Assembly: GCF_910596095.1 (NCBI RefSeq)
Contig: NC_056550.1
Coordinates: forward strand, 25,225,001 to 25,289,000
Source: Thunnus maccoyii
Taxonomy: Eukaryota > Chordata > Actinopteri > Scombriformes > Scombridae
Reading direction: 5' to 3'
DNA: 64,000 bases
The translations under genes were made by a program, and so were the position numbers. The notes beneath the pieces are model-generated. The model searched no databases. It was not told where the DNA came from and worked only from the letters and a program-made list of their open reading frames with translations. Shown here in pieces: positions 14,415 through 63,444 of the stretch (positions are counted from its first letter, which is position 1; the number at the start of each line of letters is the position of its first letter).

Positions 14415-22941
<8,527 letters not shown>

Positions 22942-25139: not shown

Positions 25140-25397
25140 CTTAACCCTAACCCTACCCTAACCCTAACCCTAGTCCTAACCCTAACCCACCCTAACCCTA
25201 CCCTAACCCTAACCCTTACCCTAACCCTAATCCTAACCCTAACCCCTAACCCTAGTCCTAACCCTAACCAACCCTAACCCTAACTCTAACCCAACCCTAA
25301 CCCTAACCCTAAGCCCTATACCTAACCCTAACCCTTACCCTAACCCTAATCCTAACCCTAACCCCTAACCCCTAACCCCTAACCCTAATCCTAACCT
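25140..25397 (+). repeat. Interstitial telomeric repeat (CCCTAA)n
   Basis: About 258 bp of mostly ccctaa hexamers with variants (cctagt, cccaac, ccttac, taatcc). The block is bounded by unique sequence and lies between gsg1l2 and rcvrn. The variant spectrum shows a decayed array rather than a fresh telomere end. Confidence 0.92.
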
Positions 25398-29116: not shown

Positions 29117-29315
29117 TTCAAGACAGCTGTCTGGATTTAGAGATGCGATGACCATAATCCCATTTGGCACCTTGAGGGGCTGCCAGGGCGAACACAAGGC
29201 AGAAACCCGTACGAGCACCGCAGAGGTTTTACCGCCAAACCGCGAGGAGCAGGAGGACAGAAAGACAAGAAGAAGAACAAGAAGAATTTCAGCTTTGTGA
29301 AAGCCAGTTTGCAGC

Positions 29316-30825
29316 ATGGGGAATACAAAGAGCAGTGCTTTGTCGAAGGAGATCCTGGAAGACCTGAAGTCCAACACCAAATACTCCGAGGCTGAGCTCT
29401 GCACCTGGTACCAGTCCTTCCTGAAGGAGTGTCCCAGCGGGAAGATCAGCAAGCAGCAGTTTGAAGGCATCTACGCCAGCTTCTTCCCGAACGCAGACCC
29501 CACAGCCTACGCTCGGCACGTATTCAGGAGTTTTGACACCAATGCAGATGGCACTTTGGACTTTAAGGAGTACATTGTTGCTCTGCACCTCACCTCCGGT
29601 GGAAAGACTCTGCAGAAGCTGGAGTGGGCCTTTGCCCTGTATGATGTGGACGGGAATGGAACCATCAACAAAAATGAAATCCTAGAGATTGTTAGGGTAC
29701 TTATACCTTCTTCTTTAATCACAGTGGAACAGAAAACATTATCTATTTACTGCTAACAACCTGAAGTATATTTGATATTATATTCTGTACATATTTGATA
29801 GAAATGTCCTGTTTCCCTGCAGTAATTACTCACTTTGACTTCCATTCGGCCTCTGTATAAAAAACCTTTTATATGGATAAACAATGAAAACAAGATGGTC
29901 CATTGGACTTTATTTCTCATAGCTAAATTTCTTTAATGGAATGAATTTAGCACTTCTGCCTTGTGATGAATGAGACTGTAATGAATCCATAATGTTGTCG
30001 ATTTTATGACATGGGTTTAAATCCTTATATGTACACACAATATACAATAATGACTCTACAGAATAATAACCAGGCTAAATACCAAGGCAAGTGCTGCTAC
30101 CGCTAATTGTATTTTCATCATTTATCAATTATTATCATTATTATTATTATATCAATTATTAAATAATCTACATATTATTTTCTTGATTAATCTACTAGTC
30201 TGTAAAAATTGTGTAAAATAGTATTAAATTTACAGTTATACAAAGCAGAGAAAAGCAGCAAATTGTCACATTTGACAATCTGGACCCAGCAAATTTTTGG
30301 CATTTTTGCTTGATAAATTAATTAGACTATCAACTGATTATCAAAATCAACACCAAATTGAGGTTCATGGATACTTTGAAGACTTTAAGGTGTTATTTTG
30401 TGTGATTATTTTGTATTTCATGATGAATTTCAGTATGAACTGTTGAATACATCTTATAAAATTACTTTCATGCAGTCAATATTCAACATGATTCCTGCTG
30501 ATGACCAGGACAACCTCCCTGAGGATGAAAACACGCCGGAGAAGAGGGCTGAAAAAATCTGGGAATTCTTCGGGAAAAAGGACAACGGTAACATACAAAT
30601 TTTTTAACTCTTTACCAGCTGCTTTAAACCTTCTCTATACTGTACCTTCACATGCAGCCAGATGTGTTGATGCCGCTCTACTTGTTCTGTTTTTGTCCTT
30701 TCACAGATAAAATCTCAGAGGGAGAATTCATTCAAGGTGTGATGGACAACAAGGACATCCTGCGGTTGATACAATACGATGAACCTCAGAAAATTAAAGA
30801 CAAGCTGAAAGAGAAGAAGCAATAG
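29316..30825 (+). CDS. rcvrn: Recoverin (three exons)
   Basis: Exons 29316-29696, 30476-30587 and 30707-30825 with GT-AG introns join into 203 aa, essentially the usual recoverin length (about 202). The N-terminus MGNTKSSALSKE carries the Gly2 myristoylation signal. EF-hand 1 is non-binding, with the hallmark Cys39-Pro40. EF-hand 2 (74-85, DTNADGTLDFKE) and EF-hand 3 (110-121, DVDGNGTINKNE) have intact loop ligands; EF-hand 4 is degenerate, as in the family. The C-terminal segment ENTPEKRAEKIW and the Lys-rich tail KLKEKKQ are typical. Recoverin is the calcium-myristoyl switch protein of rods and cones that restrains rhodopsin kinase. The exon structure (large exon 1 covering EF1-3) agrees with the family. 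The ATG is preceded by a leader containing a possible 50-codon upstream frame. Confidence 0.97.
29978..30200 (+). repeat. Direct repeat partner of 27895-28085 (rcvrn intron 1)
   Basis: Same ordered words as the upstream copy, and it continues into a member of the ATTAATCGATTA family. Confidence 0.6.
30110..30355 (+). repeat. Diverged interspersed repeat, ATTAATCGATTA family (rcvrn intron 1)
   Basis: Contains 'cgctaattgtattttcatc', 'tcttgattaatctactagtc' and ends 'agactatcaactgattatcaaaat'. More diverged than other copies. Confidence 0.5.
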
Positions 30826-31569: not shown

Positions 31570-32395
31570 TTTGTGTCATACCATTAAAGGATAAGGATGA
31601 CTATGATTATTGTCAACTAATCTCATGTGCAGAACAATGAATTCATCTACTTATAAGTATCGTGTGTGTATCCAAAGTCTGATATATCTTATTCCTGTGT
31701 GCTGTAAACCTCCGTTGTTGTCAAAAAAAACTATTAAAAACACATCAATGAGCCACACCTCTGCACTGGGTGACATGTTCCTTCATCACAAAGAGTTTGG
31801 TCAGAAATAGCTACAAGGAGTAATAACAGTGATCCTGTTTTCAGTCTCCGGAGAGTAGTTCTGTGTAAAGAAGACGCCACTGAGCATGTGCAGGAACACT
31901 ATTTTGTTTACAGTGCTACACTAGCTTGTTGTGCTACATATTACAAGCTCTCATTCATTATAAGTAACTTTAAAGTCCAGATGAAACAATGTTTTGAGAG
32001 TGAAACAGGACAGACAGGTGGCACATAACGTTGGGGTGAATTTCATTGGAACACTGAAATTTAGGCGTCTCTCTCCGCTGCTGAAAGATTGATTGATGGG
32101 TGGATGTCATGATATTATTGGTTGGTTTAAGCATGTGTAAGGACACGTCATATTTAGTTTTACAGGAAGAAAACATGCTTGGATTTTGACATAAGAGTAA
32201 AAAGAAATTGGCATATATTGTTGAATAGGTGCACAATATGACCAAGGATTTCATCTCAACTTTAATATTGTGATATTTAGCACAACAAGCTAGTGAAGCC
32301 CTGTAAACAAAACTGCACTCCTGCACATGCTTAGTGACCAAACCCTTTGTGATATGAGGAACATGTCATTCAGGTGTGGCTCATTGACTCAGATT
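31570..32395. mobile_element. Two-armed copy of the foldback family between rcvrn and gas7
   Basis: A forward arm (31570-31965) includes 'aaaggataagg', 'gtatccaaagtctgatatatc' and 'ctagcttgttgtgctacatatt'. A reverse arm (about 32255-32395) includes 'tttagcacaacaagctagtga'. A spacer of about 290 bp separates the arms, unlike the 3-base loop of the copy at 14815-15375. Confidence 0.65.
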
Positions 32396-46900: not shown

Positions 46901-49900
46901 ACCACAATGACAAAAGAGCACAGAAATACAAAAACCGTTGGTGATAACACAAAGATAAACCTCAGAAAGACCTATTGAACATTGACTGATAAGGTAGATT
47001 TATTGATTTTTCTGAACCCGATGAACAACAACAAAAAAAAGTGTTGCTAGGAAATATCTGTTTTTTTTTGACCACAGGAAATAATTTTACTGAATCTGAA
47101 TCTGTAGTATTTAATGACACATTATATTAATAATCCATCTTATGCTGCTTGTTTGGTCTGAACTAAAGATGTTTTATAATCCACACTTCCCACACACAGA
47201 GCTAGAGCAGCTCTTATTCCCTCTGCCAACAGTTAAGCCTGTAGGTGCAAATGCAACTCTTGTTGGCATCATTTTGGCAGCTTCTGGTTGAGTTTTTGAG
47301 AAGCCAGGACCTTGATATTTACAAGAACTGGCAAAACTGAATTTGTTGAAAAAAAAAATCCATTGAAAAAGCAGCATGTTAAGGATAATATTCAGGCAAT
47401 ATTGTGTTAGTTCGTCTCTCACAGACTCTGCTATATGCCCAAAAGCCACTGGTTTCTGCTAGGGGTACTACTAGGTGCCCGAATACAAATACGTTATTTG
47501 GCAAAGCACAAATAGTGGGGTTTTTATGAATATTTGTTTTATACAAATATTTTAAAAATTATTTGTTTTCGGGAAAAAAAACAAAAAAAACAAGTCAAAT
47601 ACCAGCGGTCGGTTACATCACTATCTCAGTCTCTGTCCTCTGCTCCGCTGGTACGTCTGTCAGCAGGTCTCAATGAGGGGAGTCACATCCACCTGCTACA
47701 TGACGCACATTTCCTAATTTGGACATCACTCCTGGAGTTGGGGGTGTTCCCCAGAGATAAAGCTGAAGTACTGACACATGCTTCATCACTTTAATTTTCT
47801 AAAATTAAAAGCTTAATAAAAAGAAAAACAGGATTTTTAAGCCTCTTTCCACTTTTATTCGAATACAAATACAAATAATTTTGCTGCCTCAACAGATACA
47901 GATACAAATACAAATACTGGGCTCTCTGTACATCCCTAGTTTCTACTGAAGGTATACTGTAAGTCTTTAAAAATGATTCCTAAATATATAGTTTCATTTT
48001 TTTTAAAAAAAGGCAAAAGTTTTTAGCTAATGTTACTCAAACAGGAATAAATTGCTCATTTGTTAGGGCCTATTTTTTGTAGTGGATGAATCCACATTTG
48101 GTGCACTAGTGAGTATTTCTGGCAGCAGGACAGTATCTGTGTTCATGGTAATGAAGGAACATGTCACCCAGTGCAGCTGTGTGGTTCATTGACATGTTTT
48201 TAATAGTTTTTGAACAACAATGGAGCTCTACGGGCCAGAGGAATAAGACATCAGTCTTTAGGTACACACACAATACTTGTAAGTCGATCAATTCATTGTT
48301 GGTTTTGGTCTTATTATTTGATTTATAACCAATAAGAGAAATACAGAATATCATCAGACTTATCTATTAGGATAGTAGGTCACTGGGGTTACTATCATCT
48401 CCACCAGGGGGGATGATATCTGCATCCAAAGCATAATTAATAACTGCCTTCAACAAGCTACAGTCTCCTTTTTGTTGTTATGACAGTGGAGTCGAGTCTT
48501 ATCTGACTTTTACCTCTCATGGATAAACTCGGACATCTCCTTCTGCATCTGTTTGCCCTTCAGCTGCTTCTGCAGAAGAACCTCGAAGCCCGCCACAGAG
48601 GTGGTCCCCTGGGGGTCTTTCTTGTCGGTCTGAGGAAGAGGAGAGCATCATTCACACATACAACAGCTGACCAGTAAACAACCACAGCTCTGAGTTATAG
48701 AACGTCCAGTAACACCTCTTTGTTGTTTACGTTTGAGAGGGGTTTGTGAGTCAGAAACTATGTGCATGAATGCGTGACTCACACTCTGCATGTCAAGGAG
48801 GGCATGCGTCGGTGTGTGTGTGTGTGTCAATCACTGGACGGGCGGATATGTGTGTTATGTGTGTTTTTAGAGCACAAGAACACCAAAGACTTTATGGGCG
48901 TCGTGCAGCACTCTGTCTCGTTTGTGACAGGAGTGATGTGTGTCGCCACGTGGAACTGAAGGTGCCAGATTTATTTCACACAGCAGGTCTGAGCAGCTGG
49001 TCGGCGGACGTACAAAGCATCACAAGCAACATGACACGACAGGCCGCAAACAAGCAGCAACACAGCAATAAAGAAGGAGGAAACTGGCATTGGATTTCAC
49101 TCGATTATGCAGGCTCAAGGGTTTTTCAATACAAATCTAATTTAGGATGGAAATGTATGGAAACTGAAAACTACAGCAGACACGAGGGAGACATTTGAAG
49201 CAGCGATCATCACTTGTGTTTGCAGAGAAGCCGGTCGATCAGCCTTCCACCTGTGATCCACCCACTCCAACATGAAAGCCGATTGTATCTTTTGTTGAAC
49301 GAGCAGTAAAGTGCTGGATCCATTCTCAACTGGCAAAAAGCATATCGACCATTTTCCCATGTTTTTAGTCTCATAGCAATTTGATGTAACGCCTTAAGCT
49401 TTTGACTGCAGCATTTCCCGGCAAACACATGTTCTAAAGGTCACAAAACGAGTTGACAGTAACCGTCTGTAGCTTTTTTTTATTTGTGGGTTGGTGGTAA
49501 TTCACCCAAATACTTTCATACTGCATGTGCAGAATGCAGTTGTCTTTGGTTCATTATGATAAGATGGTTCAGGTAAGAAAATGACTCACGTAAAGCCTGA
49601 AGTTCAGCTGAAGTTAGTCAGTTACAAGGTTTGGCAACAAGACAACTTGGTCACGGTTACTGTAATGGATATTTTTACTCTTGTGTTTATTGTCTTAAGA
49701 TTATGTTTTATTGTTTTATGTTATACTGTCTTACAGCTAAGTTAACAACATAGTTCTTCTCTCATGTGAACATGTCTCATCGCTGCCTCCCAACAGGTGT
49801 GGATCAGTTAATTAAAGCAAGCTGAGATTCGGCCTTCAACTTCTACTCCTCAGTAAACAGACGCAGAGAAGAAAACTCCCCAAGCAGGAAAAACGGATAA

Positions 49901-52900
49901 GAAGCTATGAATGAATAGAAGGAACATTGTGTATTCATTAAAAGACACCTGTTGGGATGACGAATGTATGAACAAACACTGAACTTCATACAGTATCTCT
50001 TCAGCCGAGTAAACTGGGAGAATGTGTATTCAGGATATTGTGATAAACCTCTGAAAGACATCTTGCTCTCTGTGAATTCATCTTAAATTTCCACCACAGT
50101 TACGTACCAGAAACTCAATCATGCTACCTGTTCAAGCTCGACTGATACTAGACTGAATTTAATTTGAAATAAAAGACAAACATTAACTGGACAGGACATT
50201 TTATAATTGAAAAATAAACTTGCTTAATGCTCTCAAACATGTCTTTGGCATTTCTGTGCTGTAATTTCTCAGGCTGATAATGGATCCATGCCCATGATTT
50301 ATTAGTCAGGCTCAACCTGTATACACTGAAGGGGTGTGCCCGAATACAAATACATTATTCGGCAAAGCACAAATAATGGGTTTTTTTTTTTTTTTTTTAC
50401 AAATAAAAAGGGTCTGAGGAGTAAATTTTAGCTCAGTAGTCAGTAGCCTAAAATTAAAAGCGTAATAAATACAAAAACAGGCTTTTTAAGCCTCTTCCCA
50501 CCTTTATTCAAATACAAATACAAATACAAATATTTTTTCTGCCTCAACAAATACAGATACAAATACAAATACTGGGCTCTCTGCACATCCCTAATACACT
50601 GACTGTTTGTAGTCACATATACTCCGCGTTATGTTGGGTAATATATTTTAATTTTGCTCATTTTTTAAAATATTGTGAGGGAAAAACATTCTATTCCAGA
50701 TTTGGCGATTTTTTTTTCATGTTTTCAGATAAATTGGATTTTGCTTTTGAGTAAAAAAAGCCTTTCAACAAACACTTTTTCAGTCTAGAATCTGTTATTA
50801 CGTCTCCGCTGCCGATTCTTGATTATGTACACAGCTCCTCAATCCTACAGGATTACCATTATTAAGATGATGATGGTGAAAGTGGTCGTTGGCTTTCATG
50901 TTTACATATATATTCATCACTGCTGTTTTACTTTAGTTGAATTTGTTCAGTGGGTTGTTCAAGTTGTCTACTCACATATTCTGGATCTGACTGAGACTCG
51001 AACATGTGTAGATGTATTTGAGAAGCAATATGAGCCGAATTTTGTAGGTGGTTTTATTATAAGGTAAGTTTATTATTATTATTATTATTATTATAATCAT
51101 TATTGTCGAGAAACAGTTTCAGCTTTTTTGGCAAATAAAGTGTAAGAGAAGGCGGATCTGTAAGTTCACAATTGTATATACTCCTCAATGGTAATCCTCT
51201 ATCCAAGTCAGGTGGTCTATAGATAAAGGTGGCTCTCATCATCATCAAAATATCACAAAGATTAGCTGTAGTTCCTGTGTTTTAGTTGAACTCACCCAGA
51301 AGTAATCGCAGTAACTCCATTCGTTGGGTTTGAGGAGCTGCTGCTCCGGGCCTTCTCCAGGCAGAGGGAAAGTCACGCAGTTGATCTGTAAGGTGAAAAA
51401 AAAAAAGGAGAAGAAACAGAGATGAAGAGCAATGACCTAACTGATGAAAAATATGAGAAATAACAGAGCTGCTAAAGGCTCCGAGCCAAACACCTCTGTG
51501 AGAATTAATTTGATCTGCAGCAGTCAGAAGAAGACATGAGCGGCGGAGTCTGTGGGAAATGATATTGTTGAAAGCCTGAGTCTGAGTTTCACTCGGATCA
51601 TGCAGATGAGAGGAAAAAGGTCAGGCATGAGTAAACATATGAATGTGGGGATGTTTGCCCTCCAGAAGGTGACCCATGAGCCTTCGGGGGGGGGAGAGAG
51701 AGAGAGCGAGAGAGACCCTGATCACTTGAAAACAAAGAGAAACCCATTCTACTATATCCCTTCGATTGAACAAACACACTTTATACACTTAACAAAACGT
51801 GGACCGTTGCAGATAAACACACCCAGCATCAGCCTGAATACAGACTCCATGGTCCAGAGCGTCTTCAATTACTGTTGGGGCTGCAATTATGTAATGTTCA
51901 CCATCTGTGAGCCCTCCCTCCTGGCACTACAAGATACCCTCTGTGCCATGTCAACCGCTGCTGCAAACTACATGGACATCCAGACAGGATGTTTCATCCA
52001 CAAACACACAGAAACACACTGACTCACAGCATGAGTTCACCACTGTACTGCTGTCACAAACACTGAAGGAAAACATGGAACGCTGACCAGCTGGCTCATC
52101 CGAACTGCCTCATTCTTTTTACTCAAATAAAAAGGTGTAACAGGAATTATTTGAATCATTTGAGCAACGTGAAAATCACAAGATATTCATGAAAGAACAC
52201 CAAAGGGAAGTGGGAGGTTAAAGATATGATGTTGGTAAGCTGAATTTTCCTTAGACAGATATCTTGCTAAGCCCTCAGGATCAGCACCAGGATGTGTGAT
52301 GAATGTAGAGCGGCGGCCATGGTTGAAATTGCAGGTCATGTGACACCCTTTGACCCATAAAAACCAGCCATTAGGTCCAGTAACCCAATCAGTATATTGT
52401 TTATATTCCATTAAAGCCACTATGATAGATATTTTTATATTAACGATGTATGAAATGACAGTGATGTGTTGGTCATGGCTCGTAGTGATGAAGCTACAGA
52501 GAATTATCAGCGACTCTGCAGCTCCTCTCGGCTTCACGGAGCTTTATAGCGAGTTTCAGCTCATTGTTTAGCTGCCCGGCTGCAACTTTACTGTTTTGCT
52601 TCACTCTCAGTGCTCTCATAGCGTCGTTTTCGACTCTAAAGCTCTAAAAACCCACTGTACACGACCTGCTCAGCACCAAACGGTGAACAGACAGTGACTA
52701 GCTGGTGAACATAGTGGAGCATTTAGCGGATAAAAAGCCAGATGGAGTTAGTAGAGAGCACAAACAAAGCTAAAAGAGATGATAATGTTGTTCTGTAACT
52801 GCTGGATGTGATATTAAGCAACTGTTTGCTGACAAGTTGAACGTATCAACTTGAAAGGTGATGATGTGTAAGTGTTGTGTTCACTACTTGTGTCCAAGCG

Positions 52901-54856
52901 GCCAAAAATTCAGTTAATGCAGGTTTAATTTGAACAATAAAACCAAAACAAAGAGCTGAACGATGCTAAACAGCTCTGTAGATTTGCAGGGAAATGCAGA
53001 GTCTCAGAAAGCTGCATTAATAATTGGTATATATTACATATTTTGGTCAAAGACAATACAAAAACTCATAAATACACAGGTATGACACATTGGCTTTGTG
53101 AGTTACGTTAGCAATAGAGCTGCAATGATTAGTTGATTAATCAATTAGTCGACGGGCAGAAAATTTATCGGCAACTATTTTGATAACTGAATAATCATTT
53201 TTTTAAGGAGAATGTTCAAACATTTGGCGGTTGCTTCTCATAACTTATCTGAAGTTGTCATCTTTGATTCTAAGAAATTATAACAGACATTTTTCATTAT
53301 TTTCGGACATTTTTTAGACAATCAATTCATTGAGAATATAATCAGTAGATTAACTGATGATGAAAATAAACATTAGCTGCATTCCTAGTTGATCCAGCAG
53401 CCACAGAGAAACATTATCCTCCACATGTTTCTGTCCTTATCTGATCAATCCATCGTCTAACATCTACTGTCTTTAATAGTCACTAACTCTCTGTTGTTCA
53501 GTGCTGGACAGGAAGTGTACTGTACAATCAGCTTGTCAGAGCTCAGTAATGGAAATGTTTGACAGAGAACCAAATCAAAAAGCTGCAGTGATCATTTTCT
53601 ATGGGCTCTGCAATAACAGTTGCCCCTTTGACACTGCACACACACATTTGAGTTATTTTTCAAAATATTACTTTCATGTAGAACATTTCCACAAAGCGAA
53701 TGGAGCACTCCTCTTTGTTGCAGCCTGACTTGATGATAAGATGGCTGTATATTTTTTGCATAAAGTGAGGCTTTAAGCATCAAAAACACTCAGCTTTAAA
53801 AAGCCGATGTTCCAATGAACACTCGACACTACTGACCCCCTTCATTCTCTGCATAGCCACCGCAGCACTTGATCCGTGCAGCTTCTAATAAACAACTTCA
53901 AAAACAGATGAGTAATACTTCCTCTGTTATATAATCAGTGAAATCCAGAGGAAATACTAAAATGGCTTTTTGCCATCCACACGTACCAATACGGCAGAAG
54001 ATAAACAGAAAACCTGCATATACACAACGGAGACACATTAACTCACAATAACACTTTGTAATCTGAAGAAGCAGCGATGTGATTTACTCCGCGTGTCGAC
54101 CAGTCACTTTGTTCATTTTCTGCCTCACAGATCATACTGATTGTCATGGGCACCAGATTTTCCATTACACTGGCTCCACATCTATCATGACTGTTGTTTA
54201 TCTGCCTCTCACATCCAGCAGAAAATTAGACCATTTATCTAAAGGAAGGCTGTGTGGCTAACTTACTTCTCCTTTATGGCTGCTTAGTGAAGTACTCTGG
54301 GGTTAGGAATAAAATATTAATATAGATTACCTTTATGACACAGCATGTAATAAAGCCTTCTCATCTGAGGGATCTTAAGCCTTTCTGGTTTGAGGTTGAG
54401 GTGTTGCGGGAGGCTGTATTTCCATATTGCATCCATGAATGTTACAGTTTAGCACAAAACAAAGCTGCGAGCAGCATGTAACAGTGATTTGTCGAGGTGA
54501 ATTGGGACATTTTGTCCTCATTCGGCATTCATAAACATTCGCTCTTGTGAGGGTTTTGTATGCCGGCTTCAGGCGGTGGTTCATTTCATTACACATATAA
54601 ATGTTTTTTATTTATTCATTGTTGCTCTTTTTCTTTCGTTGAACAGAGGGCAAAAAAAAAAATTCATGACACAGTCGAAGAACAAGCGGCCCATGAGACA
54701 CACAAAAAAAACAATGATTTGGCAAAGCAACAAACAACTGAAACATTCTCCCACATCCATTTCTGAGCAGCTACAGCGAATGAGACTGTAGGATGCTGCT
54801 GTTGCTAAGCGACAAATTACTTTTGCTGTAAAGGACCCCCCCCACCCCTCACCCCC

Positions 54857-54889
<33 letters not shown>

Positions 54890-56967
54890 TCTCATAACAA
54901 AACAATTTCAGACTTCCCCTCTATTCTCTCTCTCTCTAATCGCCTTTTCTTCCCTCCTTCCTCCTTTCTCTTCTTCACAGACTGAAAACAGACCAATCAA
55001 GATGCCCCATCCAAGTCCCGCCAACAAAGCCAGATGACACTCTTAACGAGCTGCTATTCCCCGAGTGCCTACGCCGAGCGCAGCATAGCAACAAGTCAAA
55101 CAGCACACAAATGAATGTTTAATAAGCTAAAAAAAAAACGGAGGAGTGAAGTGCCTCATCTGACGGCTTCATATTGATCACGCTCGGTGAAGGTGAAAGC
55201 AAGGTTACTGCTCCTTCTGCTATCTGATGCGCGAGCCGCCTCGGCGTCCTGCGAGGGGTCCATTTTGCACAACAGTCATGGATGTGTGCGTCTCCATGAC
55301 AACTGCACGGCTGTAAAAGGGGTTGTGTAATGTGAGGTGCACCGTGGCGAACAAAAAGACACCTTTGTGGACTGACATCATCCAGCCACAGATTCAATCA
55401 TTATCACCTGTGTTATTTCCAACTCCTGTCAACCGCAGCAGGAATATTTACACTGTTGCACAGAACATGCTTCATTTCTGTCTGTGTTTTCAGAAATGAA
55501 CACTTTTTCGCCTTCATGTGTATCGGGAACTAATTAAGATACTGATTAATTTGTAAAAAACACTGTCACGCCTCATCTCTTCATGAGAATTCACTGGATA
55601 CAAGTGAAGCCAAAGTGTCCACAAAAGATGTATGAGAAGCTTTGAAAGAACCCTGCAAAGGAAGAGGAAGAAAATAATCTTCTTTCTTTTTCAAACAGTA
55701 CGTATTCAGTGAATATCTGAATGGCCCCCCCACCCCTCCCTCCCCCCCCCATTCTCTTTCCTATGGCAGTGTTTTCCATTTCAACACCCATTAATCAGTG
55801 CTATTGCTTTTGTCACCATGGAAACTGGACTTGCTGCATCTCTCGCAGGTCTGTGGGGTTTTCACAAAAGCCAGACTGACGGCTCCCGTGGTTGCGGCAG
55901 GTCAGCGAGCCCACCGAGCGCAAAATCAGCCCCTGCGAGACACAAAACCACCTCTGTCTGTCTTCCCTCAGCCCAGCAAATCATCACCATCACCACCGCA
56001 CACCCCCCCCCCCCCACCTCCCACAGTCATCATTATGGACTTAAGGATTACATAACCACGGCTACTGTCTAGGCATCTTAAGACAAAGGTACTGTACACT
56101 TCTTTACAGAAATCTGAATAGATCCTGGTGCCCAAATTCTACTACGAGTTCTTCACAGCCTGGCGCACAAAGTCTTCACTTTCCAAATGCTGCCGGATGA
56201 CAAAACGGCAGTTCTGTGTGACCTGCGCTGCCCTGCAGATAAGTCCCCCTTTGAGGAAGAATAAGGGAACACACAGTAGCGCACTGAGCAGCAACTCCGT
56301 GACAGAAACACTCAGAGATCAAGATCCTTTCTTTATCTGGCAGACAGAAGACATCTTGAGTCTAAAAATGGCAACGGCGGTCCGCGGGCTACTACATCAG
56401 CTTTGTACTTTTCAGTCACTTCAGTAACATTTCGATATGATGAAAACTGCACGGCGAGGAAACACATTTCAGCATAAATTCAGACATTAAATCAATAATA
56501 TGGAGATCGAGTCAATCAATGAGACAGAAATGAGCGCAGGACTCCTGGACAGCTTGTTCATTCACACTAATGTAGTATCCAATATGCAGGGAACCCCATG
56601 TTACTCCGCGAGAACCCATAATGCATTAGTGTGGAGCTGTGAGCTTAAAGATAACAGCTGAAAAGAAAAAAAAAAAAAAAAGAAAGATGAGACAATAACT
56701 TATTTCTGCCACATGAGGAGCTTCACAGAGGATGGAGAGGTTGACAGAAGCAGCAGATGGAAGCATCAGAAGATGTAGAAGAAGAAGAAGAAGAAGAAGA
56801 AGAAGAAGAGGATTAAGTTGGAGCTCCTGGGTACTCACAGTTATCTTGGTCTCCTTGACCTCCTTGATCTGCCTCTTGGCCGGCGAAACGGAGCCGGGGG
56901 GCTGCGGGGCGAGACAGGAGGGATCGTCAAAACTCTCCTCAGTGTCAAAGCTGGCTTCCATCATCAT
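34936..56967 (-). CDS. gas7: Growth arrest-specific protein 7, F-BAR form (ten coding exons)
   Basis: Minus-strand coding exons: 56967-56839, 51385-51296, 48629-48514, 45754-45680, 44632-44554, 43059-42928, 40700-40577, 37767-37688, 37597-37499, 35049-34936. All junctions are GT-AG and the phases join into 345 aa ending PVDMDI. After a 43-residue leader ending in AKRQIKEVKETKIT comes INCVTFPLPGEGPEQQLLKP, then the F-BAR domain (about residues 60-310): NEWSYCDYFW, KDPQG..SVAGFEVLL, KIEEEYAKNL, LHSEVEKPL, DHHIADLRKQLASRYASVEK, KTQQLEIKLSNKTEEDIKKA, GDDLMRCVDLYNQ, KWFEEMVTT and HETDMFNQS. These are near-identical to vertebrate GAS7. F-BAR dimers bend membranes and bind actin; GAS7 drives neurite and lamellipodium formation. 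The SH3 and WW domains of longer isoforms are absent from this model; their exons may lie beyond 64 kb or in unrecognised sequence. Three consecutive ATGs (56967, 56964, 56961) could start translation; the first is used. Confidence 0.94.
36350..36610 (+). repeat. Dispersed repeat shared with 41030-41270
   Basis: Both contain 'ttccaaaacc', 'agcaaaagt' and 'gtctggctaac'/'gtccggctaac' in order. Family unknown to me; both copies are in gas7 introns. Confidence 0.4.
39750..40135 (-). repeat. Dispersed repeat, inverted relative to 3520-3970
   Basis: Reads 'gcaggtatgtttac', 'gagcagctaattagc', 'aggctcagtgtgactgtctgc' and 'gcaatttaattccagttgga', each the complement of words at 3520-3970 in reverse order. 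Located in gas7 intron 7. Confidence 0.65.
40190..40290 (+). repeat. Fragment of the SINE-like repeat seen at 1336 and 61000
   Basis: Contains 'agagtgctatcaatctgctc', 'agcaagaaagtgaatatg' and 'tatttcccaaaatgtcac'. Confidence 0.6.
41030..41270 (+). repeat. Dispersed repeat shared with 36350-36610
   Basis: Partner of the copy described at 36350. Located in gas7 intron 6. Confidence 0.4.
47460..47938. mobile_element. Non-autonomous hAT-like element, copy 1 (gas7 intron 3)
   Basis: Begins TAGGGGTAC, soon gives GTGCCCGAATACAAATACG, and ends GCTCTCTGTACATCCCTA. Flanking octamers are gtttctgc (47452-47459) and gtttctac (47939-47946), an 8-bp duplication with one mismatch. The interior holds the same core as the copy at 62637 in the opposite orientation (e.g. 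'agcaggtctcaatgaggggag'). No transposase frame. Two other copies: 50329-50593 and 62637-63354. Confidence 0.85.
48110..48260 (-). repeat. Single arm of the foldback family (gas7 intron 3)
   Basis: Contains 'taatgaaggaacatgtcaccc', 'agtgcagctgtgtggttcatt' and 'taatagtttttgaacaacaa', matching the right half of the element at 14815-15375. Confidence 0.6.
50329..50593. mobile_element. Non-autonomous hAT-like element, copy 2, shortest (gas7 intron 2)
   Basis: Begins AAGGGGTGTGCCCGAATAC and ends CTCTCTGCACATCCCTA; the flanking octamer atacactg is perfect on both sides (50321-50328 and 50594-50601). At 265 bp it has lost most of the interior seen in the other two copies. Confidence 0.85.
51067..51096. 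repeat. (ATT)n microsatellite
   Basis: About nine tandem att units in gas7 intron 2, about 200 bp from the exon at 51296-51385. Confidence 0.85.
52420..52930 (+). repeat. Interspersed repeat (AGCTGGTGAACATAGTGGAG family), fullest copy
   Basis: Runs from 'taaagccactatgatagatat' through 'ctgctcagcaccaaacggtg', 'agctggtgaacatagtggag' and 'gctggatgtgatattaagc' to 'aatgcaggtttaa'. Other copies at 19095-19400 and, inverted, at 58690-59275. Confidence 0.7.
53115..53400 (-). repeat. Interspersed repeat, ATTAATCGATTA family
   Basis: Starts 'agagctgcaatgattagttg', continues 'attagtcgacgggcagaaa', and ends 'gaaaataaacattagctgcat'. Located in gas7 intron 1. Confidence 0.7.
54836..54889. repeat. C-run followed by (CA)n microsatellite
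   Basis: A run of C residues, a C-rich spacer, then about fourteen CA units. Located in gas7 intron 1. Confidence 0.85.
56776..56810. repeat. (GAA)n tract in gas7 intron 1, just after the first coding exon
   Basis: About twelve AAG/GAA units on the plus strand, i.e. (TTC)n in the transcript, starting about 28 bases downstream of the gas7 first-exon donor (56838). Homopurine-homopyrimidine DNA of this type can form triplexes. Confidence 0.85.
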
Positions 56968-57008
56968 CCCTCTCACCACCTCCTGCTTCTCTATTCTGGG
57001 AAAGCCTC

Positions 57009-57061
57009 ACACACTCTCTCTCTCTCTCTCCTTCTCGCTCTCTCTCTCTCTCTCTCTCTAT
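57009..57061. repeat. (CT)n tract upstream of the gas7 first coding exon
   Basis: Two CT runs separated by 'tccttctcg'; GA-rich in the gas7 transcript direction. The lack of a pyrimidine tract on the minus strand argues against a splice acceptor here, so the exon at 56839-56967 looks like a first exon. Confidence 0.8.
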
Positions 57062-57099
57062 CTTTCCCCCGCCACGCACCGAGGCTGCCTCCAGTCTCA

Positions 57100-57400
57100 C
57101 AAGCCAGGAGTGAGTGGAGAAGAGTCGCGTTGCAGGGAGAGGGGGGTGTGTAGCAGTGGGAAGGTACGGGTGAGGAGGAGGAGGAGGAGGAGGAGGAGGG
57201 GAGGTTTGTAGGGGGGTGGGGGGGGGGACAGTGGCGGCTGTGGGAGCGTAACGAAGTCTAGCCTCCGGTTAAGCTGCTGTCACATGAGTTTTAAGGTTGA
57301 AGTCTGCGAAGAGATGGATGCTGCCTGCGAGGGGGGCGGCTCTGCGTCGCAACCCCCTCACCCAACGACGTACATGCAGAGAGAGAAAGAGAGACCACTG
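57100..57400 (-). promoter_or_regulatory. Possible promoter/5' UTR zone of gas7 short form
   Basis: GC-rich sequence with several CpGs (gtggcggctgtgggagcgtaacg and around) directly upstream of the first coding exon on the minus strand, mixed with (GAG)n and G-runs. No TATA box visible. Inferred from composition and position. Confidence 0.35.
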
Positions 57401-57669
57401 AACCGCTTTGTGGATGAAGATGCTGGAGCATGAAGGGAAGGGGAGGGAGAAAAGAGCATGCGAGTAGGAAGAGAGGAAAATTTTTTTTTTTTAAAAAAGC
57501 ATGGAGGAGAAAGAAATGGAAAAAGACAGGGAGAGTTAAAAGAGAGTAAGAGAAGGAGGAGGAGGATGAGGAGGAGGAGGGGGATTTATTTACATGATCC
57601 TCGCCACACCTCCCTCGTCCCTCCCCAGAGAGCCAGATAGTGAGGGAGGAGGGAGCAGCTGTGGTGGTG

Positions 57670-57697
57670 GTGGGGGGGGGGGGGGGGGGGGGGGGGT
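57670..57697. repeat. G-homopolymer tract
   Basis: About 26 consecutive G residues preceded by GTG units; a strong candidate for G-quadruplex formation and for sequencing-length error. Confidence 0.85.
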
Positions 57698-58689
57698 TGA
57701 TGGAAATGGTTGAATGATGATCTTTAAAAGACTAATTACGATTGGGAGGGGAACTGGAGGATGGAGGGGGGAGGAGGAGGAGAAAGAGCACAGGAGGGAA
57801 AACAGGCAGCCAATGAAATGCAGCCTCTCTGATTATGTGTTTACGTGTTGGGATGAGCTGCATGCACATGAAGGGGTTAAAAAGGTGTGCTGAGGAGGCA
57901 TATAACAGAAAAATATTTGTGGGGAAAAAAACGCATTTCTGTGTGTTGAGTGTTTACAGTAAATATGTGCATGCACGCAGCTACGTTGTTATCATCTTCC
58001 TCATATGACTGCTCTTCACCTGAGGCGTCAAACACAAGCTGTGTGCAGAGCAGGAGCGGCTACGACGGCACACGTGATCACTGCAGGGGCAGCAGCCCTC
58101 TCACACCTTCTCACAACATCCACCTGCGCCGGTCCAACAACAACACCATCACAGCCACAACAAACCACACCGAGGAGCGCGTCGACTCACGTTCTCACCT
58201 TTGCTGCACAGAACATGGCGGCGGCAGCTCTGACCAGCACGATCCCAGTCCGGGCTGCCGGAGATCAGGCAGGTTTTTGTGATCGGGGGCTCCAGCGCTC
58301 CCAGTGTGAGCTTTGAGTTTTGGCTGGCCTCCTTTCCAAAAGCTGAGAAACTCTGACACGTGTAGTCCAAATCTCAGCCGCCCATATGGCCCAACTGTCT
58401 GTCCATCTAGTCTCCTGTGTGATCATGACACGGTATGCCCTCATCTGACTCGTAATTAGTCACGTGGGTTGGCATGTAACCGATGTTGGCCCGGGTTCAT
58501 CGGAGCTTTAGTGGACGGAGTGGGGCAGCTTTGTCTCACAGAAATACTGATATCATATTGTGAACTGAAGACGATTAAACGGGAGAAAGCGCCAAATGTA
58601 TTGGAGTCTTTTCAATAAGCCAACGTAAGACAGGAGCAGAGAAGGTGTCAGTGAAAGTGAACTGCTTGCTAATGATTGTTTTTATTAAC

Positions 58690-59275
58690 CTTTAATCAGT
58701 TGATCAGTTAAACATTAAAGCTGCATTAACTGATTTTTTGGCCACATGTTCTCAGCAGAAACAATTAGAGAACACGACACTGACGCATCATCACTTTTTA
58801 AGTTGATATATGTTGAACAAACAGTTGCTTGTTTCCACATCCAGCAGTTACGGAGCAACATTATCATTCATTTGGAGTCATGTTTCTGTCCACCTGGTGA
58901 ATGTAAGTCCAATATTCTCTCTCTTTTAGCTCTGTTTATTGCTCTCTACCAACTCCTGAGGGAAATATCTGACTCTTTAGCTGCTAAACGCTCCACTATG
59001 TTCACCAGCTAGTCTACAGCTAACTGTGTCTGTTTGCTGTTTGATGCTGAGCAGGTAGTGTACAGTGAATTTTTTGAGCTTTTTCTCTGAAAACAGCTGC
59101 CTGCTGCAGCCAAAAATGAAGCTATAAGAGCCCTGAGAGTGAGCCAAAACGGTAAAGTTGCAGCCAGACAGATAAACAATGAGCTGAAACTCCTTAAAGC
59201 TGAGGGGAGCTGCAGAGACAGATGACAGTCTATATGTTGGTATAATAAAACATGTTGATTATAGCCGCTTTAAGT
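58690..59275 (-). repeat. Interspersed repeat (AGCTGGTGAACATAGTGGAG family), inverted copy
   Basis: Contains 'ccacatccagcagttac', 'ctccactatgttcaccagct', 'tgatgctgagcaggtagtgt' and 'tgcagccagacagataaaca', the complements of words at 52420-52930. Confidence 0.7.
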
Positions 59276-59280
59276 GAAAA

Positions 59281-59460
59281 TTGTCCATTGCTATTTCCTG
59301 GAAGCCGGAGGTGACATCTTCAAATAGTTTGTTTTGTCTGACCAACAGTCCAAAACTCTAAAAATATTTAATTTGTAACAATTTAAAACATAGAAAATGA
59401 GAAGCTGGAAACCATGAATGTCCAAAGTTGTTGTTAAATTGACTAATTGACATTTTCTTT
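59281..59460 (+). repeat. Partial interspersed repeat, ATTAATCGATTA family
   Basis: Shares 'tgacatcttcaaatag', 'gaccaacagtccaaaac' and 'agaagctggaaacca' with the copy at 63445. Ends are truncated. Confidence 0.5.
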
Positions 59461-60499
59461 CAGCACTACAAGAAACCATGAAAGAAAGAAAAGAAGAACA
59501 CCTGTCACTGTTTGTGTAGAAACAATGCTGACAACTCATTCTGCTACAGCCTCGTTCAGATTGAGACGTACCTGTTTGTTCATGACAGGTTTCCTCAGAG
59601 CAACATTGGCCGTCTCTGTGGGCTGGCTGGGTTTTATTCTGCTGTGGCTTCCATTGGCTGCAGACAGAAACATCATAAACCACACGTTACTGTCAAGAAT
59701 GACAGCTGCAGTCTCACTTTCAAACAATTACTTCACAATAACGAACAGAAAGGGAATGAGCAATCGACAATTCAATTCGATTACAGCAGAAAGGTCACGT
59801 TCTGCTGAGATTTTAATATGTGACATCCCAATGTTGGGATGTCCGAGCTGTTGGCAGCTTCAGAGACGACAGACACTGATTTGTTCTCCTTCACAATAAA
59901 CAATGACTATTTCACTCAGCTTCTGAGGCAATTTGAGGCCATGACAGAGCTTTTTTTAGCTCCTCTTGGCACTGAATGTTCTTATTTCAGGTATTTGCAG
60001 TGTCCGTCCTCTTCTCAGACCCACATATGAACACATGAGCCCGGCCCTGGGGGGCTCACAGCTTTGTGAGCAGCTCTGTAGTAACGTCCCCCGGTTTCAT
60101 CCTACAGGCTAATGGTTCTATCATCGCCTGTGATTCATGAGCTGTCCGATCGTTGCATATCAAATCGGCCCATCGCCGGCTGAAGGTAAACACGTGAGTC
60201 CGGCAGAGTGACCCCTGAAGCTGTGGTCGCTGGTCGGAGCAGGACCGGACCCGCCTGAAGAAAACGGAGGCAACTCTGAAAATAGCGATGGCGGTCACTT
60301 AGCTTAAAGGAGCCTTAAGAAGTCCACGACCTTCACTGACTTTTGTTAGTGACCGATTCAATTTAACAGCGTCAACAACTCTCTGAGACTCTCTGTAATT
60401 GACATGAGTGAGTCACATTTGCACAAAAGAGAGAAAGTAACAGAAGGAATATTTTACCATCTAGGCTACTGGAATATTAATTGTGCTTTGTCCTTCACA

Positions 60500-60640
60500 G
60501 AAATGTCGGACTTTCTTGTAGTCCAATCTTTACCAAGTTAGGATATAATTCAACATTTTGGAAGATACGCTTATCACTTTCTTTGTGGGAGTTAGATAAG
60601 ATGATGCTGCTTTCGTGTCTGTGTGTTGAAGAGGACATTT
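60500..60640 (-). repeat. Fragment of the SINE-like repeat, inverted
   Basis: 'attcaacattttggaagatacgctta' and 'gttagataagatgat' are the complements of the end of the repeat seen at 61000-61190. Confidence 0.5.
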
Positions 60641-60999
60641 TCACACGCACATTTCCAGGTCTGTATTTATATTCTGGGGCTCTACTAGAATAATGTTGCA
60701 TAATTTACAATTTAAAAAAAATCCTTATTTATCTTATACCGACCCTTTATGCAGCCCCTCAGTTCAGCTTCTGTCTGAAACAGGCTTTTTTAACTCCCTG
60801 TCCCTCCTGATAAGCCCAGAGGCTACGTAAACAAACAGTAGCAGTTGGATTTTGCTTATTTATCTCATTCTTTACTTGAAATATAAACTTCTCAAATACA
60901 TCCGTGCATGTTCAAGCCCGAATCAGATCCCAGCCCGGACTGGCAGGAGGTAGAAGGATAAACTGTGGTCCGCCAATTAAAAGTCACAGCACATAACTC

Positions 61000-61190
61000 C
61001 ATAACTCTAAAACCAGATATTGACATTTTTACCTGTCTTTATGCTAAGCTAGGCAAATCCCCCTCTTGGCTCCAGCTCTGCACAGACATGAGAGTGTTAT
61101 CAATCTTCTCATCTAACCTTGGAAAGAAAGCAAATAAGCATATTTCCCAAAATGTTAAACTATACTCAGTTAAGGAATGAGTTTCTACCT
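61000..61190 (+). repeat. SINE-like repeat, same family as 1336-2340
   Basis: Contains 'tttatgctaagctagg', 'gacatgagagtgttatcaatc', 'aaagaaagcaaataagc' and 'atatttcccaaaatg'. Confidence 0.65.
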
Positions 61191-62636
61191 CAGAAATAGT
61201 CTAAATGGAAATAGCAACATTTAGGGAGTAATTTCTGATTATACATGTTGTTACTGAATTTTTAAAATGTATTTTTTTTTAATGTTTTGAGCAGCACAAA
61301 CAAAATTCAATTGATCCTCCATGTATTGAGGGGGCAACAGTCATTTCAAATGCATTTTATTTATGTTTTTTGTCATTTAAAGGTTGGGATCGTCTTAAAA
61401 TGGAATTAGGATCTTCGACGAAGCACGAATGAGCTTATTAAAAAACAAGAAATTGTAGCATCTAGCGAAGTCATAACCCTCTACCTGCTCTTTGCAAAGA
61501 AAAACAAACAAGCAGATTTGCATTATCTGTATTTGTTGTACATGTGTTCATGTATGTGTATCTGCGATGCTAATTTTCAGCAATTCAGCCTTGTCTCGTG
61601 AACTTCCCTTTGGACGCTGCATCATTAGTCGGTTTAATCCTCGGTTTCCTGTCCAGAGGTTGAAGGAGACGACCATCTAAACCCGGCCTTCATTAAACTT
61701 CTCTCTCTCTCTAAGGAGGCTCACACTTGTCTGGTTGAATGCTGACAAACTCCCCTGCAGCTGACTGCCTCTAAGTGTGTTTAGGCTGCATGCCAGCAGA
61801 AAGAAGAAAACCATCTGCTATCTGCTAAGATGCTGTTAGCGAGCGTGTTGCTGGCAGCGATGAAACATAATAAGCCAGTCATTAAGGAAATGTAGGATTT
61901 GATCCAGTAACACTAACTGAGGTTCATGATAAAGTCGGACACAGCGGAAAATTGTTTTACAAGCGGGATTTGTCAAGAACGAAATGTGACTCTTGGAAGT
62001 CTCTTGGAAATACAGTGAAGCACTATTGTGTCAGTTAAACTACTCTGCTGAAGGAATCTGGTTTTAGCATAATAAGCAGATTACAGCTGATGAATGATTG
62101 CCCAAAAGGCTTCATCTGTCCGACTGGAAAAATGTTAAAAATTAAGTCATGACCTGTAGCTCCACATGGAAACCATCTGAATAGAAAGAGCAATTTACCC
62201 AGTGAATACAGGAAACAGAGCTTCTTAATATCTTTGTCATTCTTTACCACTGAAACCTTCATCAAACTCTTTTATCTCATTTCTACATTCAGCCTCCATT
62301 TTTCAGTGTTTGTTTGCTCATGTGGATGTTTGTTATGATTTACATGATTTAGAAATAGAGTCCAAAAATGGATGTTTACAAATGTAAAGGCTCAGTTTTA
62401 CCATATGGTGAGGAGTTCTGTTGTGCCAGTGATCTCTGCGGGGCCTCAGCTGACATGGAGGGGCGTCGCCATGTTGTTTCTGGAATGACACAATCAACAG
62501 GAAGGATCACGGTTGAAGAAGAGAACGTGGCACAATTTCACAGAACATCAAGTCCTTCACAGCAATTCTTGCACGTCAACATTTTGTTCATTCTGAACGT
62601 TTGATAAGAGGACAGGTGCTGTAATAATGTACACAC

Positions 62637-63354
62637 TAGGGACGTGCAGAGGGCCCTAGTATTTGTATTTGTATTTGTTGAGGCAGCAAAATTATTTGTA
62701 TTCAAATAAAAGTGGAAAGAGTTTAATTTAGGAAATTAAAGTGTTACAATAAGTGTTCATGAATAAACTAGGTCCCCACACTGGGTCTCAGACTGGAGTC
62801 TCCCAGATGACAAAATGACTGTGCTGAGCTAAAACTTTATTCATCACTTCATTGCAGACAGGCCTCTACTTATTTATACACTCACAACACAGAGACAGCA
62901 AACCATGTAACGTGTAGGGAAGAACTTCAAAGGTGATTACTGCTTTGCACTTTTCATTTATGCCTAATTTTTACAACCTAACTTTGTGGAAAGCAGAAGG
63001 GTAACAACAGGTTATGGAGAGTCCCTTGGGAGCACTTGGCTCATGTCAGTAGCTCAGCTTTATCTCTGGGGGACACCCCCAACTCTGGGAGTGATGTCTA
63101 AATAAGGAAATGTGCATCATGTAGCAGGTGGATGTGACTCCCCTCGTTGAGACCTGCTGATAGACGTAACAGCGGAGCAGAAGAGAGAGACACTGAGATA
63201 GCGATGTAACCGACCTATGCATGTATGTACATGTTTTTTTTTTTTCTCTCAAAACCAAATATTTTTAAAAATATTTGTATGAAACAAATATTCGTAAAAA
63301 ACCCACTATTTGTGCTTTGCCGAATAAACGTATTTGTATTCGGGCACACCCCTA
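62637..63354. mobile_element. Non-autonomous hAT-like element, copy 3, longest
   Basis: Begins TAGGGACGTGCAGAGGGCCC and ends CGGGCACACCCCTA, inverted ends with few mismatches; the flanking octamer gtacacac is perfect on both sides (62629-62636 and 63355-63362). Subterminal (TATTTG)n/(CAAATA)n arrays are present at both ends. At 718 bp it is the fullest of three copies and still has no transposase frame. The 8-bp duplication and TAGGG termini fit the hAT superfamily. Confidence 0.88.
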
Positions 63355-63444
63355 GTACACACCCAAACTGGCAAGTTTTATACAAAACACTACAAGGTAC
63401 AGAGTTTGTACAGAACCCACATCAACACCCCTCTTGTTTTAATT

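What the first reader, a model, noticed from the sequence alone, without database searches (positions are those of the whole stretch)
47460..63354. Three copies of one small hAT-like family within 16 kb, all with readable 8-bp target duplications
Copies at 47460-47938, 50329-50593 and 62637-63354 share TAGGG(G/A)(T/C)GTGC-type ends, CAAATA subterminal arrays and core sequence, with flanking octamers gtttctgc/gtttctac, atacactg/atacactg and gtacacac/gtacacac. Two perfect duplications suggest recent or well-preserved insertions. The three sizes (479, 265, 718 bp) give a deletion series from one parent.
Basis: seen in the sequence. Interest (0 to 1): 0.7.

Follow-up and report, generated by a model that had tools for sequence, protein, structure and literature searches.

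The report
Old high-copy hAT MITE family
Three short repeats in this (probably fish) genome are copies of one old, very common kind of jumping DNA that makes no protein of its own and was moved by a borrowed enzyme; this is ordinary, though one shortened version spread and piled up near chromosome ends.

Summary
Confirmed, and largely ordinary. The three copies lie at the stated coordinates with the stated ends and 8-bp flanks. The window's own genome (782 Mb) holds 2,254 matching 5' ends and 2,817 matching 3' ends; reversed-pattern controls give 0. The consensus is 781 bp, without a long reading frame. With ends fixed by alignment to the consensus ends, 27 of 37 copies have 7/8 or 8/8 target duplications, against 5 of 1,332 swapped flank pairs. 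The target is nTnnnnAn, the Ac-group hAT signature. Four insertion sites have relatives without the element. "Recent" is not supported: mean divergence from the consensus is 6.3%. "Deletion series from one parent" is half right: the 718-bp copy is not the parent, the 479-bp copy belongs to an amplified subfamily with one deletion junction, and the 265-bp form was not found again above 81% identity. No autonomous partner was found in an incomplete search. Unexplained: 36 of 83 exact short-form junctions lie in 1.5 Mb of one contig. Whether the family is already named in Repbase or Dfam could not be tested.

The parts
47460..47938 (+). Copy 1, 479 bp, short-form member (lacks consensus 316-609 and 615-629; 8 extra bases in its 5' end)
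47452..47459 (.). Left target duplication of copy 1, GTTTCTGC
47939..47946 (.). Right target duplication of copy 1, GTTTCTAC (7/8)
50329..50593 (+). Copy 2, 265 bp, heavily deleted form; first base A instead of T
50321..50328 (.). Left target duplication of copy 2, ATACACTG
50594..50601 (.). Right target duplication of copy 2, ATACACTG (8/8)
62637..63354 (-). Copy 3, 718 bp, long form with small private deletions
62629..62636 (.). Target duplication of copy 3, GTACACAC
63355..63362 (.). Target duplication of copy 3, GTACACAC (8/8)

Best explanation
The three sequences are old copies of one non-autonomous, non-coding hAT transposon family (a hAT MITE, Ac group by its target site) whose long form is about 781 bp. 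Shown: fixed ends TAGGGGTGTGC...GCACATCCCTA, 8-bp nTnnnnAn target duplications, relatives of the host repeats without the element, thousands of termini, no long reading frame, several internally deleted forms of which one was amplified. Inferred: a hAT transposase made elsewhere in the genome recognised the 11-bp ends and the CAAATA subterminal repeats (by analogy with Hermes), cut the element out and joined it to staggered 8-bp cuts; internal deletions that spare both ends stay mobile, so one deletion product became a subfamily.
For: 2,254 5' ends and 2,817 3' ends with up to 2 mismatches, 0 in reversed controls. Octamers of 7/8 or 8/8 in 25 of 34 (ungapped ends) and 27 of 37 (gapped ends), against 5 of 1,332 swapped pairs; in a second sample not chosen by length, 11 of 14 with both ends (20 sampled). 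T at position 2 in 23 of 27 and A at position 7 in 23 of 27, the rule given for Ac-group elements (PMC8961557, passages). Four insertion sites have relatives with one octamer and no element. Consensus without a long reading frame. Shared deletion junction.
Against: No transposase gene with these ends was found, in an incomplete search. 10 of 37 copies have 6/8 or worse octamers. 6 of 20 sampled perfect 5' ends have no 3' end within 950 bp. The 5' and 3' TIRs are short and match at 10 of 11.
Confidence: 0.93

Rival explanations
1. The copies, above all the short form, spread mainly as passengers of segmental duplication or gene conversion and not by transposition.
For: 36 of 83 exact short-form junctions lie in 1.5 Mb of contig C3, about 24 per Mb against 0.06 per Mb elsewhere.
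Against: Octamers differ from copy to copy. The 444-bp right flank of L128, a short-form copy inside that block, has no second match over its whole length among the best 40; its matches are to an interspersed repeat in its middle. Only this one flank of the block was tested.
Confidence: 0.05
2. The long form arose from the 479-bp form by gain of a ~294-bp piece (perhaps tRNA- or SINE-derived), so that the short form is ancestral and not a deletion product.
For: The piece (consensus 316-609) holds a TATA-like stretch and A- and B-box-like motifs 43 bp apart; 3 of 1,000 Markov shuffles score as high.
Against: No duplication or tail brackets the piece, by my reading of the consensus. Rfam gives no tRNA match in 11 copies at E up to 1, ARAGORN none in 27. 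The boxes are not better conserved than the rest (A 0.917, B 0.842). Other copies have different internal deletions.
Confidence: 0.12
3. The three copies and their octamers are chance look-alikes in AT-rich DNA.
For: The subterminal parts are simple-repeat-like (CAAATA runs).
Against: Joint chance of the octamers about 3e-13; thousands of termini and zero in controls; 88% identity over 308 bp between copies 1 and 3.
Confidence: 0.001

Closest known systems
Maize Ac/Ds (internally deleted Ds elements)
   Same: Non-autonomous hAT elements sharing 11-bp TIRs and subterminal repeats, varying greatly in size and interior, some of them internal deletions (abstract start of PMC3260210, seen in the listing).
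   Different: Here no autonomous parent was found, so derivation by deletion from an autonomous element is not shown; hosts and sequences differ.
hAT MITEs such as mar of Drosophila
   Same: Short non-coding hAT elements with TIRs (PMC3517528, listing and abstract start only).
   Different: mar is of the Buster group (PMC8961557, passages); the target site here is of the Ac group.
hobo (Ac group)
   Same: 8-bp target duplication with consensus nTnnnnAn (PMC8961557, passages).
   Different: hobo is autonomous (2,959 bp, same passages); this family is non-coding, with other ends.
Fish hAT elements Tol2 and Tgf2
   Same: hAT elements of fish (PMC4890040, listing and abstract start only; Tol2 recalled).
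   Different: Their terminal sequence as I recall it is CAGAGG..., here TAGGGG...; no comparison was run.

Membership tests
hAT superfamily | 8-bp target site duplication | tested here: met
   7/8 or 8/8 in 27 of 37, swapped control 5 of 1,332; 25 of 34 with ungapped ends; shifts of 1-3 bases lose the match
hAT superfamily | Short terminal inverted repeats, 10-25 bp | tested here: met
   TAGGGGTGTGC against TAGGGATGTGC, 10 of 11; range from PMC8961557 passages
hAT superfamily | Moved by a hAT transposase (RNase-H-like fold, C-terminal dimerisation domain) | tested here: inconclusive
   No transposase gene with these ends found; 150 of 652 PF05699 candidates scored, DNA read around 30; PF14291 61 matches by coordinates only
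hAT superfamily | Subterminal repeats that bind the transposase | tested here: inconclusive
   CAAATA arrays are present (8, 10 and 7 copies on one strand in the three elements); binding was not testable
Ac group of hAT | Target consensus nTnnnnAn | tested here: met
   T2 in 23 of 27, A7 in 23 of 27
MITE | Short, non-coding, high copy number, with TIRs | tested here: met
   251-785 bp, apart from one longer copy (805 bp); no long reading frame; thousands of ends
Named Repbase or Dfam family | At least 80% identity to an existing consensus | not testable with these tools
   Neither library was on hand; one search searched five strings of the ends in papers only
tRNA-derived SINE inside the element | Recognisable tRNA | tested here: not met
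   Rfam: no tRNA match in 11 copies at E up to 1; ARAGORN 0 in 27; only box-like motifs

The most novel reading that the evidence does not exclude
A single internal deletion product of a hAT MITE became its own lineage and, unlike the long form, jumped or survived almost only in chromosome-end compartments, with a local burst of dozens of copies in a 1.5-Mb block of one chromosome: local, compartment-bound mobilisation of a deletion derivative.
Probability: 0.2. Interest if true: 0.45.

Novelty: new member of a known kind. Interest (0 to 1): 0.25.

Why it matters
It gives a cleanly delimited hAT family (consensus, ends, target site, sites without the element) for annotating this genome, and a visible step in how MITE subfamilies arise: one internal deletion shared by 211 junctions (up to 2 mismatches). 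If the concentration near chromosome ends is not an effect of duplication or of a general richness in repeats, it would allow a test of local hopping against selection as the cause of uneven transposon spread.

Tried and rejected
Rejected: 'recent' insertions. At 6.3% divergence per copy an 8-bp duplication stays perfect with probability about 0.36, so two perfect ones do not show youth. Rejected: L063 as the autonomous partner; it is another hAT element (ends TAGGGCTGTAGTC, octamer CTGACTAC on both sides) nested in a copy of this family. Rejected: the hAT fragment at C1:30797787, 5.5 kb from one of our 5' ends; by my reading L129 runs into the end of a different hAT. The 601 bp beyond the PF05699 match of the uninterrupted hAT frame on C14 hold no end of this family (best match 11 mismatches of 24); this does not exclude an end further away. 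Rejected as proven: a tRNA gene inside the element. An exact 21-mer of the 5' end had no match in viral contigs or genome contigs; neither is a collection of animal genomes. Paper searches: one search searched five strings of the ends and listed 14 papers, none with a transposon title; the others searched topics. The library lacks most subscription journals, and Repbase and Dfam were not on hand, so the family may already have a name.

Not resolved: one pair of perfect ends 4,630 bp apart (C1:36952546-36957175), a longer relative or a copy with an insertion, not read; a PF14291 match 6.7 kb upstream of a perfect 3' end (C1:6643740), not read. Searches for PF02892, PF04937 and the long-form control junction did not complete, so the short/long contrast in position rests only.

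Full report
Observation. The octamers beside them match at 7/8, 8/8 and 8/8, a joint chance of about 3e-13 for random flank pairs. The 5' motif (2 hits against 0.02 expected; copy 1 is missed because of its insert) and the 3' motif (3 hits against 0.00) are far above shuffled sequence, and the CAAATA-rich bins of the window all overlap these elements. Copy 1 has eight extra bases inside its 5' end, and copy 2 starts with A.

The family in its own genome. The window lies in an assembly of 782 Mb and 54 contigs. That it is a teleost is inference; no call names the organism. Copy 3 as query gave 3,927 first-look candidates, of which 40 were scored and all matched. With up to two mismatches the 5' terminus occurs 2,254 times and the 3' terminus 2,817 times; the reversed patterns occur 0 times.

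Ends and target duplications. I fetched 39 further copies; they were the best matches to copy 3 and so favour long copies. With ends placed by ungapped matching, 34 of 39 had both ends, and 25 of 34 had octamers of 7/8 or 8/8 (13 and 12 of them at 8/8 and 7/8). With gapped placement 37 of 39 were placed: 16 at 8/8, 11 at 7/8 and 10 lower (L017 6; L027 and L032 5; L020, L026 and L039 2; L022, L034 and L042 1; L021 0; L034 scores 7/8 in the ungapped placement). Swapped flanks reach 7/8 in 5 of 1,332 pairs. The octamers follow nTnnnnAn (T2 in 23 of 27, A7 in 23 of 27), the rule that PMC8961557 gives for hobo as an Ac-group element (passages). A second sample took 20 of 100 listed perfect 5' ends on contigs C1-C3, about every fifth, so it is not chosen by length: 14 of 20 have a 3' end within 950 bp, at sizes of 251-785 bp, and 11 of the 14 have 7/8 or 8/8. 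Of the 6 without a 3' end I printed three; L109 seems by eye to run into LINE sequence, the rest are unexplained.

Sites without the element. Flanks of L036, L013, L047 and L024 lie in other repeats, and relatives of those repeats carry the octamer once and no element: L036 against window 31869-31762 (89%) and L017 (90%), L013 against L082 (85%), L047 against L108 (85%), L024 against L047 (77%). The octamer there is identical (L013) or differs slightly (one base in L047, L024 and L036/L017; one base and a one-base gap in L036/window), as in diverged repeats; some alignments have other small gaps close by, and a further relative of L036 at window 15174-15295 has a 13-base insertion at the spot. 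In the reverse sense L063, a different hAT, sits in a copy of this family at about consensus 530-538.

Age. The consensus of 35 rows (34 fetched copies and copy 3) is 781 bp with no long reading frame; mean K2P to it is 0.063 (0.045 without CG/TG/CA columns) and the mean pairwise value 0.110. Most internal branches of the tree are short; exceptions are copy 3 with L009 (support 0.995) and L018 with L021 (0.92). Window copies are 95.5, 93.8 and 94.6% identical to the consensus. 'Recent' is not supported; at this divergence an octamer pair stays perfect with probability about 0.36.

Deletion forms. Copy 3 is a long-form copy with private losses, not the parent. Copy 1 lacks consensus 316-609 and 615-629. 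With copy 1 as query the 39 other best matches (40 of 3,641 candidates scored, copy 1 included) span most or all of it in 455-504 bp. Of three such copies in hand, L128 has the same 316-609 junction, L126 one that fits it but for a base, L114 one within some bases of it. The junction occurs 211 times with up to two mismatches, with 0 for the reversed pattern, and 83 of the 100 listed places are exact. I read this as one deletion that was then amplified; the opposite direction is a rival. Copy 2 as query found no other full-span match above 81%. Other sampled copies show further, different deletions.

Mechanism. Shown: fixed ends, 8-bp target duplication, sites without the element, a non-coding body and amplification of a shortened form. 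Inferred: movement in trans by an Ac-group hAT transposase acting on the ends and the CAAATA repeats. Hermes BED domains bind subterminal repeats (PMC10368747, passages); binding was not tested here.

Search for the partner. PF05699: 652 candidates, 150 scored, DNA read around the best 30; of these only L063 touches the family, as a nested stranger. PF14291: 61 matches among 146 scored, coordinates only. I compared the 34 domain matches that lie on C1-C3 with 100 listed perfect 5' ends and 100 listed perfect 3' ends: 2 lie within 8 kb, one read and found to be another hAT, one not read.

Position in the genome. Within 5.5 Mb of a contig end lie 38 of 39 short-form best matches, 15 of 39 long-form matches, 21 of the first 60 PF05699 rows (of 150), 57 of 100 perfect 5' ends (C1-C3 only, list cut at C3:35.28 Mb) and 28 of 40 copies of an internal segment; a uniform spread gives 0.34 (lengths of seven contigs interpolated, and copies are not independent). 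Of 83 exact short junctions 36 lie in 1.5 Mb of C3 (24 per Mb against 0.06 elsewhere), and 40 of the other 46 are near ends. Against a special cause: the flank of L128 holds another repeat whose 40 other best rows are, by my reading, all near contig ends except C13:9.03 Mb, so ends may simply be rich in repeats. Against plain segmental duplication: the rest of that flank has no second match among the best 40, but this is one copy. The long-form junction control did not complete.

Three copies in 16 kb. At the counted densities 0.8 to 4 such 15.9-kb tiles are expected by chance in the genome, and perfect 5' ends are clustered on C3 (11 neighbours under 50 kb against a mean of 1.8, above all 2,000 simulations; on C1 6 against 1.6 and on C2 3 against 1.0, within the simulated range). 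The cluster is unremarkable.

tRNA-like motifs. Consensus 524-535 and 567-577 resemble A and B boxes (3 of 1,000 shuffles reach the score), with a TATA-like stretch upstream that is well kept (0.966). Rfam and ARAGORN find no tRNA, and the boxes are not specially conserved. A 118-nt segment has 2,250 first-look candidates; 40 were scored, at 97-99%. By coordinates two of these lie in copies and three more lie 131-182 bp from a perfect 3' end; the others were not placed. A SINE domain carried by a DNA transposon has been described (PMC6887750, title and start of abstract in the listing).

Verdict. A well-supported, old, high-copy non-autonomous hAT family, a new member of a known kind as far as these tools can tell. 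The concentration of its amplified short form is the only part that might surprise a specialist, and duller explanations are untested.

Noticed in passing
G000 contig C3:34.94-36.45 Mb (not in the window): 36 of 83 exact short-form junctions lie in this 1.5-Mb block, in mixed orientation and uneven spacing; local burst, duplication or a repeat-rich end, not decided.
   Followed up: partly
window 25142-25396: Interstitial array of the vertebrate-type telomere repeat (TAACCC)n, about 255 bp, 83% matches.
   Followed up: no
window 18796-19094: Another hAT-looking element, with TAGGGCTGGGC at both ends in inverted orientation and about 299 bp between the outer bases; its flanking octamers agree only 5/8.
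   Followed up: partly
window 15092-15388, 31667-31951, 48143-48300: Copies of another interspersed repeat (80-86% alike), which is also the host of the L036 insertion and part of the L128 flank; its best matches elsewhere lie near contig ends.
   Followed up: partly
window 29301-29756 (+): EF-hand reading frame (Pfam EF-hand), recoverin-like by recall; the neighbouring exons were not worked out.
   Followed up: no
L063 (C15:26219289-26222504), about 110-2868: A different hAT element of about 2.75 kb with a PF05699 match and octamer CTGACTAC on both sides, nested in a copy of this family; its first ~175 bp occur as many separate copies.
   Followed up: partly
G000 C10:33180946, C14:664384, C20:2301142, C22:7104745, C24:5216319 and C24:5221360: Six PF14291 matches with the same score (93.4 bits) in frames of 509-735 aa without stops: perhaps a young hAT family or a multicopy host gene.
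   Followed up: no
window 47460-47481: Copy 1 carries 8 extra bases within its 5' TIR, resembling an imperfect repeat of the junction of flank and TIR (CTGCTAGG...CTACTAGG); origin unknown.
   Followed up: no
G000 C1:36952546-36957175 (-): Perfect 5' and 3' ends of the family 4,630 bp apart on one strand: a longer relative or a copy with an insertion.
   Followed up: no
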